A DNA stretch of 8,034 nt, from the NCBI GenBank assembly GCA_009840695.1, contig VXNG01000271.1:1-8034 (forward strand), written 5' to 3'. Below are positions 893 through 6,543 of this stretch, one piece after another. The notes under the pieces were generated by a model that was not told the DNA's origin, made no database searches, and saw only the letters and a list, made by a program, of their open reading frames with translations. The position numbers and the translations under genes are program-made. Within the stretch, counting starts at the first letter, position 1, and each line of letters begins with the position of its first letter. Origin of the DNA: Acidimicrobiaceae bacterium (lineage in GTDB: Bacteria; Actinomycetota; Acidimicrobiia; Acidimicrobiales; Aldehydirespiratoraceae).

Positions 893-1801
893 CTAGGAGG
901 ACGGGGCGGGGAGGTCCTGCTCGACGGTCAGCGTGGGCGCGAACAGGTCGCCGAGTTGTTCAACCCGGTCCAGCGCTTCGGGGGCGGTGAACGACAGCGG
1001 CTCGCCGTCGGCCCCGTCGGACACCTCGTCCCAGGTGATCGGCGCGGACACGGTGGGACGGTCGCGGCCCCTCAGCGAGTAGGGGGCGATGGTGGTCTTG
1101 AAGCGGGCGTTCTGGCTCCAGTCGATGAACACCTTCCCCGGTCGGAGGCTGCGCTTCATCACCGACACCACCAGCGCCGGCAGGCGCTTCTCGAGCAGCT
1201 GGGCCACGGCCAGGGCGAAGCCGGCCGCGTGGTCGTGGGAGTGCGGCCGGTTGAGGGGCACGTAGAGCTGCATCCCCTTGCTGCCTGATGTCTTGGGCCA
1301 TCCGGCCAGTCCGACCGACTCCAGAACCTCGCGGACATGCAGGGCCACCTGGCAGCACTCGACGATCGTGGCCGGCCTGCCCGGATCGAGGTCGAACACG
1401 ACCATGGTGGGCGAGTCGAGATCGCCGCAGCGGGCCATCGGAGCGTGGATCTCCAGCGCAGCGAGGTTGGCCGACCATGCCAGCGCGGCCACTGAGTCGA
1501 GGCGGCAGTATTCGATCGGCCCTCCCCTGTCGCCCGGACCACGGCACGTGGGAACCCAGTCGGGACGGTGCTTGGGGCAGCGCTTCTCGAAGAATGATTC
1601 GGCGGTCACGCCGTCGGGCCAGCGACGCAGGGTCACGCCCCGGTCGCCGACGTGGGGGAGCATCACCGGAGCGACCCTCACGTAGTAGTCGATCACCTGC
1701 GCCTTGGTGAACCCCGTCAGCGGGTACATGACCTTTTCGAGGTTGCTGACCGACAGCCGGCGCCCATCGATGGTTACGGGCACGCGCTCGGGTGCGCTCA
1801 C
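893..1801 (-). CDS. Stand-alone LigD-type end-joining polymerase/primase domain
   Basis: This is a 302-residue protein of the LigD polymerase (archaeo-eukaryotic primase) family, which fills gaps and adds nucleotides at broken DNA ends during non-homologous end joining with Ku. Visible motifs are VSNLEKVMYP at 18-27, EYCRLDSVAALAWSANLAALE at the centre, the metal-binding pair Asp137 and Asp139 in FDLDP, the nucleotide-binding loop TSGSKGMQ at 171-178, and DWSQN at 227-231 with the third acidic residue, followed by KTTIAPYSLRGR. At position 178 a Gln replaces the His usual in Mycobacterium and Pseudomonas LigD. No phosphoesterase or ATP-dependent ligase domain is attached and none is encoded elsewhere in the window, so sealing must come from another locus. 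The GTG at 1799-1801 is forced as the first start by an in-frame TAG at 1811-1813. It lies 44 nt after ku, almost certainly in the same transcript. Confidence 0.93.
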   Translation of the reverse strand: MSAPERVPVTIDGRRLSVSNLEKVMYPLTGFTKAQVIDYYVRVAPVMLPHVGDRGVTLRRWPDGVTAESFFEKRCPKHRPDWVPTCRGPGDRGGPIEYCRLDSVAALAWSANLAALEIHAPMARCGDLDSPTMVVFDLDPGRPATIVECCQVALHVREVLESVGLAGWPKTSGSKGMQLYVPLNRPHSHDHAAGFALAVAQLLEKRLPALVVSVMKRSLRPGKVFIDWSQNARFKTTIAPYSLRGRDRPTVSAPITWDEVSDGADGEPLSFTAPEALDRVEQLGDLFAPTLTVEQDLPAPSS

Positions 1802-1845: not shown

Positions 1846-2742
1846 TCACGCGGACTTGCGTACCTTCTCGGCCGGTTCCTCCTGCGCGGCTCCGGAGTCC
1901 GACGTGGCGTCGGTGTCATCGGTCTTGGGCTTGCCTGCCGCGGGGTGACGCTTGCGGGCCTCCTTGGCCGCAGCTACCGAGGCCTCCAGCGCGGCCATCA
2001 GGTCCACGACCGTGTCGGAGGTCGGAGCCGCCGAGGCCACTGTTGCCGTGGTGTCGCCGGACGCCTTGCGCTCGATCAGCTCCAGCACCGCCTCCCGGTA
2101 GGAGTCCGTGTAGCGGCCTGGCTCGAACTGGGCTTCAAGGGCGGCGATGAGCTGGCGGGCCATGGCTGTCTCGCGCTCCTCCACCTCTATGTCGCCGAGC
2201 CCGTCGAAGCCGTCGATCTCGTCGGGTGCGACCAGCTCATCGGAGTAGACCATGGTTGACAGCATCAGCCGCCCTTCAACAGGACGGATAGCGGCCAGAT
2301 GCTGCTTGGAGCGCATCACGAAACCGCAGATGGCCACCTTGTTGGCCTCATCCATGGCCTCGGCCAGCAGCTTGTAGGGCTTGGCCGCGGCCTCGTCGGG
2401 AACCAGGTGGTAGGCGCTGTCGTAGAAGACGGGATCGATGTCGGCTAGGTCGATGAAGGCGTCGATGTCGATGGTGCGGGCCGCGACCGGGGCCAGCTCC
2501 TCCAGCTCGCGGTCGGTGACGGTGACATAGTCACCCGACGCCAGCTCGTAGCCCTTAATAATCCGCTCGGGCGGCAACTCCTTGTCATCGGCCGACGACA
2601 CCTTCTTGTAGCGCACACGGGCCCCGGTCTCGGCGTCGAGCTGGTTGAAACGCACGTTCTTGCGGCTCACCGCGCTGAAGAGCTGCACGGGAATCGTGAC
2701 CAGTCCGAAGCTGATCGATCCCTTCCAGATCACTCTCGGCAC
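1846..2742 (-). CDS. ku: Ku protein, bacterial non-homologous end joining
   Basis: This is a 298-residue bacterial Ku, the homodimeric ring that binds DNA double-strand ends and recruits LigD-type enzymes. It opens with MPRVIWKGSISFGLVTIPV, the characteristic N-terminal strand of the family. The core continues through YKLLAEAM, KVAICGFVMRSKQHLAAIRP and LMLSTMVYSDEL, and ends near residue 256 with VVDLMAALEASV, the conserved region after the core that is linked to LigD interaction. The tail (257-298) is a short basic then mixed-charge extension (AKEARKRH, AEKVRKSA), shorter than the long Lys/Ala-rich tails of some mycobacterial-type Ku proteins. The GTG start at 2740-2742 was chosen because GAGGAGG lies 6 nt upstream and the translation begins exactly where the family does; the reading frame is open far upstream but that extension overlaps the membrane-protein gene. 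The LigD-type polymerase follows after 44 nt. Confidence 0.96.
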   Translation of the reverse strand: MPRVIWKGSISFGLVTIPVQLFSAVSRKNVRFNQLDAETGARVRYKKVSSADDKELPPERIIKGYELASGDYVTVTDRELEELAPVAARTIDIDAFIDLADIDPVFYDSAYHLVPDEAAAKPYKLLAEAMDEANKVAICGFVMRSKQHLAAIRPVEGRLMLSTMVYSDELVAPDEIDGFDGLGDIEVEERETAMARQLIAALEAQFEPGRYTDSYREAVLELIERKASGDTTATVASAAPTSDTVVDLMAALEASVAAAKEARKRHPAAGKPKTDDTDATSDSGAAQEEPAEKVRKSA

Positions 2743-2748
2743 TGTTGG

Positions 2749-2755
2749 CCTCCTC
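2749..2755 (-). promoter_or_regulatory. Strong Shine-Dalgarno site of ku
   Basis: GAGGAGG on the minus strand is separated by 6 nt from the GTG at 2740-2742. It settles the ku start against the much longer open frame. It is the best ribosome binding site in the window, in contrast to the genes of the upstream block, which mostly lack one and may depend on translational coupling. Confidence 0.85.
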
Positions 2756-2763
2756 GTTCCGGC

Positions 2764-2789
2764 CCGGGTCCGGAGAAGCCGGAACCCGG
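2764..2789 (-). terminator. GC-rich hairpin between the membrane-protein gene and ku
   Basis: On the + strand CCGGGTCCGG at 2764-2773 pairs with CCGGAACCCGG at 2779-2789, with one bulged A and a 5-base loop. In minus-strand RNA it begins about 30 nt after the stop of the membrane-protein gene and ends about 10 nt before the ku Shine-Dalgarno site. No U-run follows, so it may be a GC-rich terminator without a U-tract or a structure in the ku leader. A second, weaker stem (CGGTGC at 2787-2792 with GCACCG at 2803-2808) shares bases 2787-2789, so the two cannot be fully formed together. Confidence 0.45.
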
Positions 2790-2819: not shown

Positions 2820-3674
2820 CTAGGGGGCGAGCAGGATGCGGGCCACCAGGTCCTGGCCGAAGGCGGTGACGATGGCCAGGTACACCAGGCCGGTGGCGGC
2901 CATCACCGCGGAGTACTGGCGCTCGCGCAGCGCGGCTCTCGCTACCGCCACCAGCAGAAGTGTCGTGGCGGTAGAGGCGACCCAGAACCAGCCCAGCAGG
3001 CCGTTGTAGCCGTCGTCGATGGTCCCGTTCAGCACCGACACCATGCCCGTGGGCCACAGCATCACGATCGTCTCGGGCACCCAGAGCACCGCCGCGGCCC
3101 GGATCATCTGCAGCAGCGGCCCGCGGGCCAGGCCGGGCTGGACCAAGTACCAGTGGCCCAGCAGCATCGCGCTCAGCACCGCCCCGCAGAACAGCGCGCC
3201 GACAAGGGTGCGAGCCACCGCCAGCCCGAGCGGACCCCCAGCCCCGATCGCGCCGAGGAGGGTCGCCAGCAGCCCCACCGTGGCCGCCGCCAGATCCAGC
3301 GCGGGAGGGAACTCGGGCGCAAGAGGATCGAAGCGGGCCTCGGCCCGGTCGATACCGGTCATCTCCGCCACCCGGGCCGACCGGCGCGCCACCTGGGCCC
3401 GCTGACCGGCCACGCCCGCCGACCGGCGCGCCACGGAGACCGCTCCCGCGACCAGCCCGACGCAGACGAAGACCATCGTGACCGCCTCGCGGCTCCAGGT
3501 CGGCTCGGCCATTAGTGCGGTGACCAGAGAGCCGGTGGCCAGCGCCAGGAACACTCCCCGCATCAGCCAGCCGTAGCCGAGCCCGACCTCGCGGCGGCGG
3601 GTGGTCACCCACAGGAAGAACCACCCGCCCGCGGCCCAGCCGACCAGCAGGGTGGCGGCGTCGAGTTCGACCAT
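2820..3674 (-). CDS. Polytopic membrane protein of unknown function
   Basis: I do not recognise this 284-residue protein. It is an integral membrane protein with about eight hydrophobic segments, roughly at residues 6-24, 35-55, 64-82, 126-145, 150-173, 189-207, 225-245 and 255-272. A basic, soluble stretch at about 83-122 (ARRSAGVAGQRAQVARRSAR and following) separates segments 3 and 4 and probably faces the cytoplasm. Possibly diagnostic local sequence is LLGHWYLVQPGL at 171-182 at the end of segment 5; its His-Trp-Tyr cluster could be functional but I cannot assign it. There is no signal peptide apart from the first membrane segment. The ATG at 3672-3674 lies 18 nt after the M24 peptidase stop, without a clear Shine-Dalgarno site, which suggests the same transcript. 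M. tuberculosis also has a membrane-protein gene (Rv2219) after lipA, but this one does not resemble it as I recall that protein, so I do not claim homology. Confidence 0.85.
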   Translation of the reverse strand: MVELDAATLLVGWAAGGWFFLWVTTRRREVGLGYGWLMRGVFLALATGSLVTALMAEPTWSREAVTMVFVCVGLVAGAVSVARRSAGVAGQRAQVARRSARVAEMTGIDRAEARFDPLAPEFPPALDLAAATVGLLATLLGAIGAGGPLGLAVARTLVGALFCGAVLSAMLLGHWYLVQPGLARGPLLQMIRAAAVLWVPETIVMLWPTGMVSVLNGTIDDGYNGLLGWFWVASTATTLLLVAVARAALRERQYSAVMAATGLVYLAIVTAFGQDLVARILLAP

Positions 3675-3692: not shown

Positions 3693-4796
3693 TCAGGCGA
3701 CGACGGCCAGGTGGTGGTCGGCGCGGTTGAGGGGGTCGGGACCGGCCGGCGACGCGGCCACGATGTCCTCCAGGCGTGCCCCCCACCGACCGGGCACGTA
3801 GATCCCCGGCTCGACCGAGAAGGCGTTGCCGGCCGCCAGTGGCTGATGGTTACCCTCCACGATGTAGGGGTCCTCGTGGGCCTCGGTCCCGATCCCGTGG
3901 CCGGTGCGGTGCACGAAGTACTCGCCGTAGCCGGCCGCGGCGATGATCGACCGTGCCGCTCGGTCCACCTCTTGGGCGGGCGTGCCCACGACAGCCGCGG
4001 CCACGCCGGCAGCCTGCGCTTCGAAGAGGACTTCGTAGAGCTCGTCGAACTCGCGTGGCGGCTCTCCGGTGTACACGCAGCGGGTGATGTCGGAGCAGTA
4101 CCCCACGCCGTCGCCGCCCACCATCGTGCCGCCGAAGTCGCACAGCACGACCTCATCGGTGCCGATCACACGGCCGCCGGGCTCGTGATGGGGGCTGGCC
4201 GCGTTGGCACCGGCGGCCACGATGGCGAAGTTCACTCGATCATGGCCCTCAGCCACGATCTGTCGGCCCAGCTCGGCCGAGACCTCGGCCTCGGTCCGCC
4301 CCACCAATTCGATCTCGCCCCGCTGGAGCCGGCCCGCGATCCGGTCTACCGCCGCGCCGGCGGACCGCAGGCGCTCGATCTCGTCGGCAGTCTTAGCCGA
4401 GCGGATGGGTGCGGTCACCTCCGAGCCGCGCCTCCACACCGCGTCCGGCATGGCCCCCATCAACTCCACCAGGAACCGGGACCACATGTGGTCGCCAACG
4501 GTGGCCACCGCCGCCGCTCCGGCTAGGCCGGCCACGATGGCCACCGGGTCCTCGGTCTCGTCCCAGGGCCTCACGTCGAATACTTCGGGACGCTCCACCA
4601 CCCGGGGAGCCTCCATACGGGGCACGACCAGAGTGGCCGCGCCGTCGCGGGGCACGACCAGCATGGTGAGCCGCTCCAGCGGCATGGCCTCGTAGCCGCA
4701 GAAGTACGGCAGGTCGGCACCCACCGACAGCAGCAGCACGTCGACGCCCTGCTCGGCCATCAACTCCCTGGCCCTGTCCAGCCGACTGGCGAACAT
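3693..4796 (-). CDS. M24 family metallopeptidase (Xaa-Pro dipeptidase/aminopeptidase-like)
   Basis: This 367-residue cytosolic enzyme has the two-domain plan of prolidase-like M24 peptidases: a creatinase N-terminal domain (about 1-130, containing VDVLLLSVGADLPYFCGYEA) and a pita-bread catalytic domain (about 135-360). All five expected metal ligands are visible: Asp220 (LCDFGG), Asp236 (CSDITR), His300 (RTGHGIG), Glu329 (VEPGIY) and Glu343 (RLEDI); His307 in HEDPY matches the substrate-side His. The first two Asp residues are 16 apart rather than the usual 11 because of extra Gly-rich residues (VGGDGV). Cleavage of Xaa-Pro peptides is the likely activity, but some members act on other C-N bonds. 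The ATG at 4794-4796 is chosen: it is 10 nt after the LipB-LipA stop and starts the normal N-terminal helix. The frame stays open to 4964, but that part is a shadow over lipA. Confidence 0.93.
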   Translation of the reverse strand: MFASRLDRARELMAEQGVDVLLLSVGADLPYFCGYEAMPLERLTMLVVPRDGAATLVVPRMEAPRVVERPEVFDVRPWDETEDPVAIVAGLAGAAAVATVGDHMWSRFLVELMGAMPDAVWRRGSEVTAPIRSAKTADEIERLRSAGAAVDRIAGRLQRGEIELVGRTEAEVSAELGRQIVAEGHDRVNFAIVAAGANAASPHHEPGGRVIGTDEVVLCDFGGTMVGGDGVGYCSDITRCVYTGEPPREFDELYEVLFEAQAAGVAAAVVGTPAQEVDRAARSIIAAAGYGEYFVHRTGHGIGTEAHEDPYIVEGNHQPLAAGNAFSVEPGIYVPGRWGARLEDIVAASPAGPDPLNRADHHLAVVA

Positions 4797-4806
4797 GGCC
4801 GTAAGC

Positions 4807-6543
4807 CTAGGTTTGCGCCGCGCCCGCCTTGACGGCGGCGTCGGCGGCCTGGCGGGCGTGGTAGCTGGATCGGGTGAGGGGGGATGCCTCGACATGGCTG
4901 ATGCCCATCGCTTCGCCGATCTTCTTCCACCGCTCGAACACCTCCGGCGGCCACCAGCGATCAACCGGGAGATGACGGGCGCTGGGCCGCAGGTACTGGC
5001 CGATGGTCACGATGTCGGTTCCCGCTGCGTGCAGGTCGGCCATGGTCTGGACGACCTCGTCGTGGGTCTCGCCCATGCCCGCGATGATCGACGACTTGGT
5101 GGTCAGTCCCTCCGTCTTCGCCCTGGACAACACCGACAGGCTGCGGGCGTAGCCGGCCGACGGGCGCACCGCCCGCTGAAGCCGGGCCACCGTCTCGATG
5201 TTGTGGTTGAGCACGTCGGGACGGGCATCGAACACCGTCTGGAGAGCACCAGCGTCGCCGCCCAAGTCGCTTATCAGCGTCTCAACACGGGCAGTGGGAA
5301 GGCGACGCCGGATCGCGGCCACAGTCTCAGCCACCACAACCGCTCCCCCATCGGCCAGATCATCGCGGGCCACCATCGTCACCACCACGTGCTCGAGGCC
5401 CATCCGGACCGCGGCGCTGGCCACCCGCTCCGGCTCTTCTGCGTCCACAGGCCCGGGGCGACGGGTGTCAACCAGGCAGAAGCCGCAGGCCCGGGTGCAG
5501 CGCTCGCCGAGGATCATGAAGGTCGCCGTGCCGTCGTTCCAGCACTCCGAGATGTTGGGGCAGCCGGCCTCTTCGCAGACCGTCACCAGGTCGAGGCCGC
5601 GCAGCGTGGAGCGGACCTCGTGGAACGTCGGCCCGGTGCTGAGCGGGACCCGCATCCATTCCGGCTTGCGCGACCGTAGCGGCACCGGCTCATGGCTCTC
5701 GCCGTCCAGTCGGGCAGCCTCCAGGCGGCCCAGCAGGCGGGGCGACACTCCCTCGGCCGCGGCTCCGGCCGCCGGGCTGCCGTCCGGCGCCGGATCGGCA
5801 TCCATCGAGCCGTTGGCCGCGTCCCGGGTGAACTGGGCCAGGTCGGCAGGAGCCACCCAGTGGGCGACATCGGCGCGGTCGATGCGGCCGTGCGCGCCCC
5901 ACCTCCCAGCCGCCCGTTGCGCCACGAGGTCCACGACCTGTTGCATCGACACGTCGATGCCCTCAGCCGCCAGCGATGTCACTCCCAGACCGGTGATCCC
6001 GCAGGGCACGATCCGAGCGAACCACTCCAGATCGGGATCGACGTTGAGCGCGAAGCCGTGCATGGAGCGAGCCCGCGACAGCCTCACTCCGATGGCCGCG
6101 ATCTTGCGGGGCCGGAAGCCGTCTGGCTCCACCCAGACACCGGTGTGACGGTCGATACGCCCTGCCTCCAGCCCCAGGTCAGCGAGCACGCCGATCAACA
6201 TCTGCTCCACGCCGCCTACGTAGGCGGCGGTGTCGGCCATCCCGCCGCCTCGCCGGCCGGGCACGGTGAGGATCGGATAGCCCACCAGCTGCCCCGGCCC
6301 GTGGTATGTCACTTCGCCGCCCCGATCGGTCTCCACCACCGAGCCGCCCAACGCCTCGACGTCGACCAGCAAGTGCTCGCGCCGGCCCCGGCGACCCAGG
6401 GTCACCACGTGGGGATGCTCGAGCAGCAGCAGGTGGTCGTCGATGGAGTGGGCGTGCAGGCGACGCTGCAGTGCGAGAGCGTCGTCGTAGGCCACACGGC
6501 CGAGCCAGCGGATCCGCAGCACGGGCCGGTCAGGGGCGACCAC
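4807..6543 (-). CDS. Fused octanoyltransferase-lipoyl synthase (LipB-LipA)
   Basis: One uninterrupted 578-residue frame carries two normally separate lipoate enzymes. Residues 1 to about 243 are LipB, which moves octanoate from acyl carrier protein to a lysine of lipoyl domains: RGGEVTYHGPGQL at 74-86, catalytic Lys147 in RKIAAIG, and the acyl-cysteine Cys181 in PCGITGLG. Residues about 269-578 are LipA, a radical SAM enzyme that inserts two sulfurs into the bound octanoyl chain: auxiliary-cluster cysteines 323, 328 and 334 (CX4CX5C), radical SAM cysteines 349, 353 and 356 (CX3CX2C), and the terminal RSSYHA motif at 558-563 with the Ser that ligates the auxiliary cluster. Both halves are full length with every key residue, so both should be active. 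A linker rich in Ala, Pro, Asp and Gly joins them. The start is GTG at 6541-6543, 8 nt after the E2 stop and without a clear Shine-Dalgarno site. Confidence 0.95.
   Translation of the reverse strand: MVAPDRPVLRIRWLGRVAYDDALALQRRLHAHSIDDHLLLLEHPHVVTLGRRGRREHLLVDVEALGGSVVETDRGGEVTYHGPGQLVGYPILTVPGRRGGGMADTAAYVGGVEQMLIGVLADLGLEAGRIDRHTGVWVEPDGFRPRKIAAIGVRLSRARSMHGFALNVDPDLEWFARIVPCGITGLGVTSLAAEGIDVSMQQVVDLVAQRAAGRWGAHGRIDRADVAHWVAPADLAQFTRDAANGSMDADPAPDGSPAAGAAAEGVSPRLLGRLEAARLDGESHEPVPLRSRKPEWMRVPLSTGPTFHEVRSTLRGLDLVTVCEEAGCPNISECWNDGTATFMILGERCTRACGFCLVDTRRPGPVDAEEPERVASAAVRMGLEHVVVTMVARDDLADGGAVVVAETVAAIRRRLPTARVETLISDLGGDAGALQTVFDARPDVLNHNIETVARLQRAVRPSAGYARSLSVLSRAKTEGLTTKSSIIAGMGETHDEVVQTMADLHAAGTDIVTIGQYLRPSARHLPVDRWWPPEVFERWKKIGEAMGISHVEASPLTRSSYHARQAADAAVKAGAAQT
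5740..5814 (-). other. Interdomain linker of the LipB-LipA fusion
   Basis: Residues 244-268 of the fusion are low-complexity and hydrophilic (Ala, Asp, Pro, Gly, Ser) and match neither enzyme. The preceding residues (HWVAPADLAQFTRD) resemble a normal LipB C-terminal end, and the following SPRLLGRLEAARL resembles the start of actinobacterial LipA. An in-frame ATG at 5803-5805 and a GTG at 5746-5748 exist, but neither has a Shine-Dalgarno sequence at a usable distance. A covalent fusion is therefore more likely than two overlapping products. Confidence 0.8.

What the first reader, a model, noticed from the sequence alone, without database searches (positions are those of the whole stretch)
4807..6543. 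LipB and LipA fused into a single lipoylation enzyme
The sequence shows one open frame with complete octanoyltransferase motifs (Lys147, Cys181) and complete lipoyl synthase motifs (CX4CX5C at 323-334, CX3CX2C at 349-356, RSSYHA at 558-563). These two enzymes act one after the other on the same lipoyl-domain lysine and are normally separate proteins. I infer that the fusion lets one polypeptide octanoylate a carrier domain and then sulfurate it, possibly without release, and keeps the oxygen-sensitive, slow LipA at 1:1 with LipB. I cannot say whether such fusions have already been catalogued.
Basis: partly seen in the sequence, partly recalled or inferred. Interest (0 to 1): 0.75.

Follow-up and report, generated by a model that had tools for sequence, protein, structure and literature searches.

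The report
LipB–LipA fusion enzyme of Acidimicrobiia
One bacterial gene encodes both enzymes that build the cofactor lipoic acid on its carrier protein; it usually sits beside the gene for such a carrier and is shared by most sampled members of a bacterial class, so it is real and probably useful, although each half belongs to a well-known enzyme family.

Summary
It is not an assembly error: in a 198-genome sample of its class, 182 genomes carry both halves in one stop-free frame, and 81 of 81 linkers tested are in frame without a stop, at lengths of 72-366 nt. Catalytic residues are invariant in 72 aligned fusions. A 2-oxoacid dehydrogenase E2 gene, the likely substrate, lies directly upstream in 68 of 80 loci. 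Outside the class, 0 of 31 genomes tested had both halves in one frame. Separate fusions exist in other bacteria, in the LipB-LipA and the reverse order. Databases already hold them, mostly under names such as 'lipoyl synthase'; ten searches of one open-access library listed no report that I recognised. Most likely it is a bifunctional lipoylation enzyme made together with its E2. Both activities are inferred from family; hand-over without release is untested.

The parts
4807..6543 (-). lipBA: fused octanoyltransferase-lipoyl synthase gene, 578 aa, GTG start, TAG stop
5878..6525 (-). LipB domain (residues 7-222)
6103..6105 (-). Lys147 of LipB (catalytic role recalled)
   Evidence: invariant in the 72 sequences
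6001..6003 (-). Cys181 of LipB (catalytic role recalled)
   Evidence: invariant in the 72 sequences
5758..5877 (-). linker region (residues 223-262); low-confidence core 244-259 at 5767-5814
   Evidence: pLDDT under 50 at 244-259; variable in length and composition
4822..5745 (-). LipA domain with its N-terminal extension (residues 267-574)
5542..5577 (-). CX4CX5C (C323, C328, C334), auxiliary 4Fe-4S cluster ligands by homology
   Evidence: motif role in PMC13232139 (abstract and passages)
5476..5499 (-). CX3CX2C (C349, C353, C356), radical-SAM cluster ligands (role recalled)
4855..4872 (-). RSSYHA 558-563; Ser560 corresponds to the serine ligand of the auxiliary cluster
   Evidence: R558, S559, S560 and H562 in at least 90%'s rows; role of Arg and second Ser from PMC13232139
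6552..8021 (-). 2-oxoacid dehydrogenase E2 with one lipoyl domain (which complex is not settled: SucB_Actino 408.4 bits is under its cut-off of 423.45); likely substrate; 8 nt separate its stop from the lipBA start
   Evidence: conserved neighbour in 68 of 80 loci
3693..4796 (-). M24-family peptidase, next gene downstream (10 nt after the lipBA stop); no clear role in lipoylation
   Evidence: directly downstream in 35 of 78 testable loci

Best explanation
lipBA encodes one polypeptide with two working enzymes. The LipB half takes octanoate from octanoyl-ACP through Cys181/Lys147 and puts it on the lipoyl-domain lysine of E2; the LipA half, a radical-SAM enzyme with two 4Fe-4S clusters, then puts two sulfurs on that octanoyl group. 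The gene lies in an operon-like order directly after the E2 gene, so substrate and modifying enzyme are probably made together; the fusion fixes LipB:LipA at 1:1 and tethers the second active site near the fresh product. Shown: one frame, both domains complete, catalytic residues invariant, conservation across the class, E2 adjacency. Inferred from family knowledge: both catalytic activities. Inferred only: that tethering helps the second step. The fusion most likely arose once in the ancestor of Acidimicrobiia by loss of the stop between neighbouring lipB and lipA genes.
For: Frame and residues; families over curated cut-offs; model with mean pLDDT 85.8 and pTM 0.88, whose halves match solved LipA and LipB. 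Class sample: 182 of 198 genomes fused. K147, C181 and six Cys invariant in 72 fusions, chosen from the 200 at hand. Linker in frame in 81 of 81 sequences. E2 directly upstream in 68 of 80 loci; in four further genomes the E2 stop codon touches the lipBA start codon. Concatenated tree: 25 fusions on one side of a branch, support 92/88. Outside control: of 32 genomes picked for a long LipA frame or a match running through stops, 31 have a LipB and in none does it share LipA's frame. Separate fusions elsewhere, also in reverse order.
Against: No activity, expression or proteomic evidence could be obtained. The single-gene trees do not recover the Acidimicrobiia fusions as one group (2 label changes each); only the concatenated tree does, without starred support. 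Nine of 80 loci show no E2 hit (L036 and L068 are cut by the contig; L044, L045, L047, L050, L051, L055, L060 are not), and 3 show E2 elsewhere or inverted (L020, L023, L058). One sampled genome (G096) has a stand-alone LipB and no LipA hit. Thirteen of 18 genomes have a second, weaker PF21948 hit (22.1-61.7 bits) and G018 has four more; what these do was not examined. The variable linker argues against a fixed geometry for direct hand-over.
Confidence: 0.87

Rival explanations
1. The fusion is a neutral or dosage device: loss of the stop between operon neighbours fixes a 1:1 ratio, and the two domains act as independent enzymes without kinetic coupling.
For: lipB and lipA are neighbours, some in the same frame with stops between, in several other actinobacterial loci; the linker varies 72-366 nt; both orders occur.
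Against: Kept in 182 of 198 sampled class genomes and found separately in other bacteria, which drift does not easily explain; but conservation may only mean that re-splitting is hard.
Confidence: 0.4
2. Kinetic coupling: the tether keeps LipA at the lipoyl domain just octanoylated, so the two steps run with little release (channelling in the loose sense).
For: Consecutive steps on one lysine (family knowledge); E2 gene adjacent; recurrent fusion. Recalled: E. coli LipA and LipB copurify with the 2-oxoacid dehydrogenases (Hassan and Cronan 2011; only its title was seen, in a reference list).
Against: No direct evidence; variable linker; both orders tolerated.
Confidence: 0.4
3. The primary product is cleaved, or LipA is also made alone from an internal start in the linker, so the working enzymes are largely separate.
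For: A GTG (Val266) lies near where a LipA chain would begin (read from the linker DNA); 74 of 81 linkers hold some ATG, GTG or TTG codon.
Against: Only 5 of 81 linkers have a start codon with an SD-like motif at usual spacing, against 15 of 81 control stretches inside LipB; 34 of 72 have any Met in the linker. Cleavage was not testable.
Confidence: 0.08
4. Artefact: a sequencing or assembly error joins two genes.
For: None found.
Against: 182 of 198 class genomes share it; linkers in frame in 81 of 81 sequences.
Confidence: 0.005

Closest known systems
Stand-alone LipB octanoyltransferase (1w66, M. tuberculosis; 2qhs)
   Different: Here it is the N-terminal half of a two-enzyme chain
Stand-alone LipA lipoyl synthase (5exi/5exk, M. 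tuberculosis; human LIAS 8ugo)
   Different: Here it is the C-terminal half
NCBIfam NF053790 LplA_LipA_fuse (bifunctional lipoate--protein ligase/lipoyl synthase)
   Same: Idea: an attachment enzyme in one chain with lipoyl synthase; the LipA half matches (338.9 bits)
   Different: Cut-off is 800 bits; only profile positions 330-605 of 606 match, the LipA part
Reverse-order LipA-LipB fusions (P0145, P0147, P0197 and relatives; a source names P0162 and P0203 'lipoate synthase/lipoate-protein ligase B')
   Same: Same two enzyme families in one chain
   Different: Reverse domain order and separate origin
LipB-LipA fusions outside Acidimicrobiia (P0124, P0125, P0137, P0139, P0165; Chloroflexi-labelled P0267)
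   Same: Same order
   Different: 17 of them fall with E. coli LipA and LipB on 100/100 branches, apart from Acidimicrobiia; P0267 was not placed on a tree

Membership tests
LipB octanoyltransferase | Matches curated LipB models | tested here: met
   PF21948 136.7/27; NF010925 195.9/155 and TIGR00214 139.6/83.55 met; NF010921, NF010922, NF010923 below cut-off
LipB octanoyltransferase | Catalytic Lys and Cys | tested here: met
   K147, C181 present, invariant in 72 sequences; roles recalled
LipB octanoyltransferase | Octanoyl transfer from ACP to a lipoyl domain | not testable with these tools
   needs an assay
LipA lipoyl synthase | Matches curated LipA models | tested here: met
   TIGR00510 350/310.25, NF004019 390.7/203, NF009544 373.8/210
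LipA lipoyl synthase | CX4CX5C, CX3CX2C and RSSY motifs | tested here: met
LipA lipoyl synthase | Sulfur insertion at C6 and C8 of octanoyl-lysine | not testable with these tools
   needs an anaerobic assay with reconstituted clusters
NF053790 LplA_LipA_fuse | Whole-protein score over the curated cut-off (800 bits) | tested here: not met
   338.9 bits, LipA part only
Bifunctional LipB-LipA fusion | Both domains in one stop-free frame, conserved in relatives | tested here: met
Bifunctional LipB-LipA fusion | One polypeptide in the cell with both activities | not testable with these tools
   needs proteomics and complementation

The most novel reading that the evidence does not exclude
LipBA is an on-site lipoylation machine: co-translated with E2, it docks on the dehydrogenase core and carries each lipoyl domain through octanoylation and sulfur insertion without letting it go, and evolution has reached this solution several times, in both domain orders, because the slow, self-consuming LipA gains from being held at its substrate.
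Probability: 0.25. Interest if true: 0.65.

Novelty: new variant of a known kind. Interest (0 to 1): 0.4.

Why it matters
It gives a natural single-gene version of the last two steps of lipoylation, whose steps could be uncoupled by point mutation: a clean system to ask whether lipoic acid assembly is channelled on the dehydrogenase complexes. It is also a warning for annotation: where sources name these proteins, they mostly write 'lipoyl synthase' or 'lipoic acid synthetase', so pathway surveys by name may score LipB as missing in Acidimicrobiia (inference). A compact one-gene version may also be handy for engineering.

Tried and rejected
Artefact: rejected by independent copies. Internal LipA start: not supported. 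Triple fusion E2-LipB-LipA: the long frames (944-1005 aa) with '1 TAG' in G067, G071, G134 and G145 looked like one, but the E2 stop codon lies directly before the lipBA start codon, so it is tight coupling, not fusion. The seven '1 TGA' rows among the spanning matches were examined: in six no stop lies in the best match and in one (L085) it lies at the C-terminal end. A separate-gene reading of G008 (different frame lengths) was dropped: LipB and LipA share one stop-free frame. The 'Acidobacteriota' label of P0283 is doubtful: its halves are 60% and 68% identical to the window's, so it may be a mis-binned Acidimicrobiia protein. How many of the 116 LipB-LipA proteins lie outside Acidimicrobiia was not determined. 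Domain geometry: no model file was available. My first M24 query was off by one base and out of frame; one search replaces it and no M24 number is used.

Literature: ten searches (searches found no paper). I judged by titles, starts of abstracts and, for seven papers, passages; no paper was read whole and not all listed papers were opened. The library holds openly licensed papers only, so this is no proof of absence.

Full report
What is there. Window 4807-6543 on the minus strand is one open frame of 578 aa with a GTG start. Residues 19-209 match the LipB/LplA catalytic domain, 278-328 the LIAS N-terminal domain and 343-503 the radical-SAM domain; NCBIfam scores both LipB (NF010925, TIGR00214) and lipoyl synthase (TIGR00510) above their cut-offs, while three more LipB models stay below theirs. 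By sequence, the eight distinct PDB sequences matched are separate LipA (5exi, 4u0o, 8ugo, 8tsk, 8trw) or separate LipB (1w66, 2qht, 2qhs).

Is it real. Of the 120 listed relatives (7995 in all), 120 have LipB then LipA. The best 80 of 577 loci match almost end to end; most titles say Acidimicrobiia, Acidimicrobiales or Actinomycetota (L025 and L029 say only 'bacterium', L068 is titled Bifidobacterium breve). Of the 198, 187 had a hit. In 91 one match spans both halves (stops at the end explained). Of 37 whose rows were cut from that list, 34 are fused, G147 is cut by a contig start, G096 has a stand-alone LipB (250 aa) and G150 has only a spurious hit. Of the other 59, 57 show both halves in one frame (G008), G107 is cut by a contig start and G195 has its halves on two contigs. 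Total 182 of 198; 11 had no hit. Linkers of the 80 loci and the window are in frame in 81 of 81, 72-366 nt, no stop. Commonest linker letters are Ala, Gly, Arg, Ser and Pro.

Outside the class. In a phylum sample of 246 genomes, 210 had a hit, 22 of them the class members already seen. No listed match outside the class covers both halves without a stop; the list was cut. I then took 32 outside genomes, those whose listed LipA frame is 473 aa or longer (long enough to hide a LipB) or whose match runs through stops, and searched them with the LipB half: 31 have a LipB, and in 0 of 31 does its frame length equal that of LipA. In 20 outside loci, chosen by me and not at random, LipB was found near LipA in 13: in the same frame with stops between in six (L098, L099, L100, L101, L102, L111), in another frame in five (L110, L112, L113, L116, L117), in the other order in two (L103, L104). 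The first arrangement is one from which a fusion can arise by losing stops. The concatenated tree puts 25 Acidimicrobiia fusions on one side of a branch (92/88); the single-gene trees need two changes each and leave a single origin open (output cut in the middle).

Separate fusions elsewhere. With E. coli LipB scored and only proteins of about 294-935 aa allowed, 103 of the 120 listed hits (672 in all) also carry LipA sequence: 85 in the order LipA-LipB and 18 in the order LipB-LipA; 17 carry none. Some are too short (for instance P0141, P0202, P0220) to hold both halves whole. With a cyanobacterial LipA scored and proteins of at least 495 aa allowed, 116 of 119 new listed proteins (3586 hits in all) are LipB-LipA and 3 join LipA to something else; many of the 116 may again be Acidimicrobiia. 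Source names include Gammaproteobacteria (P0137), Rhodanobacteraceae (P0139) and Chloroflexi (P0267). In the trees the 15 LipA-LipB rows form one clade (100/100 for LipA, 100/98 for LipB) and 17 LipB-LipA rows fall with E. coli (100/100), away from Acidimicrobiia. No source names the organisms of the LipA-LipB rows; their LipB falls with E. coli, their LipA sits on a long branch of unsure place. On parsimony the fusion arose at least three times: Acidimicrobiia, the E. coli-like LipB-LipA set, and the reverse order. Only E. coli served as an unfused proteobacterium, so the number inside Proteobacteria is not settled, and an older fusion split again later is not formally excluded.

Neighbourhood. 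The gene directly upstream on the same strand is a 2-oxoacid dehydrogenase E2 with a lipoyl domain; this holds in 68 of 80 loci, in 65 of the 68 within about 64 nt as extrapolated from the alignments; 9 loci show no E2 hit and 3 have it elsewhere or inverted. In four small genomes the E2 stop touches the lipBA start. An M24 peptidase follows directly in 35 of 78 testable loci. In 18 of 18 genomes the best PF21948 match lies in the fusion frame; four have no other, 13 have one weaker match of 22.1-61.7 bits, and G018 has four more, two of them above 110 bits. These extra domains may be lipoate ligases of the LplA kind; I did not identify them.

How it probably works. LipB octanoylates the E2 lipoyl lysine from octanoyl-ACP (PMC9307952, passages); LipA then inserts two sulfurs, consuming its auxiliary cluster, which Nfu-type carriers rebuild (human and E. 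coli enzymes: passages of PMC12246082, and PMC13232139). The sequence shows both enzymes intact; the activities are inferred by family. The tether and the E2 neighbour suggest on-site assembly. The recalled copurification of E. coli LipA and LipB with the dehydrogenases (Hassan and Cronan 2011; title only seen) fits this. Whether the tether matters kinetically is open: a variable linker and both domain orders speak for loose tethering or dosage rather than a rigid channel.

Known or new. Databases hold these proteins, and one source names two of them 'lipoate synthase/lipoate-protein ligase B'. NCBIfam has a related but different fusion, NF053790, whose cut-off is not met. Ten searches of an openly licensed library listed no report that I recognised; passages were seen in PMC10332631, PMC3917532, PMC3904984, PMC6067878, PMC12246082, PMC9307952 and PMC13232139. 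I rate it a new variant of a known kind, of moderate interest.

Noticed in passing
protein P0357 (528 aa): Most of an E2 acyltransferase catalytic domain (1-184) in one frame with a lipoyl synthase: substrate-side enzyme joined to the modifying enzyme. One database member on one contig; may be a local rearrangement.
   Followed up: partly
proteins P0145, P0147, P0153, P0197, P0225, P0234, P0237 and relatives: Reverse-order LipA-LipB fusions; 15 such rows form one clade in both trees.
   Followed up: partly
L122, L123, L124, L125 (genomes G067, G071, G134, G145): E2 stop codon TAG immediately followed by the lipBA start codon in the same frame: tight coupling of the two genes.
   Followed up: yes
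L118 (genome G096): Stand-alone LipB ORF of 250 aa and no LipA hit in that genome: the one apparent exception in the class sample.
   Followed up: partly
genomes G056 (C83:3299-3961) and G154 (C11:5264-5839): A second LipB match besides the fusion.
   Followed up: no
window 893-1801 and 1846-2775, minus strand: LigD primase-polymerase domain gene next to a Ku gene: an NHEJ pair.
   Followed up: no
window 2820-3674, minus strand: 284-aa ORF without a Pfam or NCBIfam match at E 0.001.
   Followed up: no
genome G018: Five LplA/LipB-type catalytic domain matches in one genome, against one or two in the other 17 examined.
   Followed up: no
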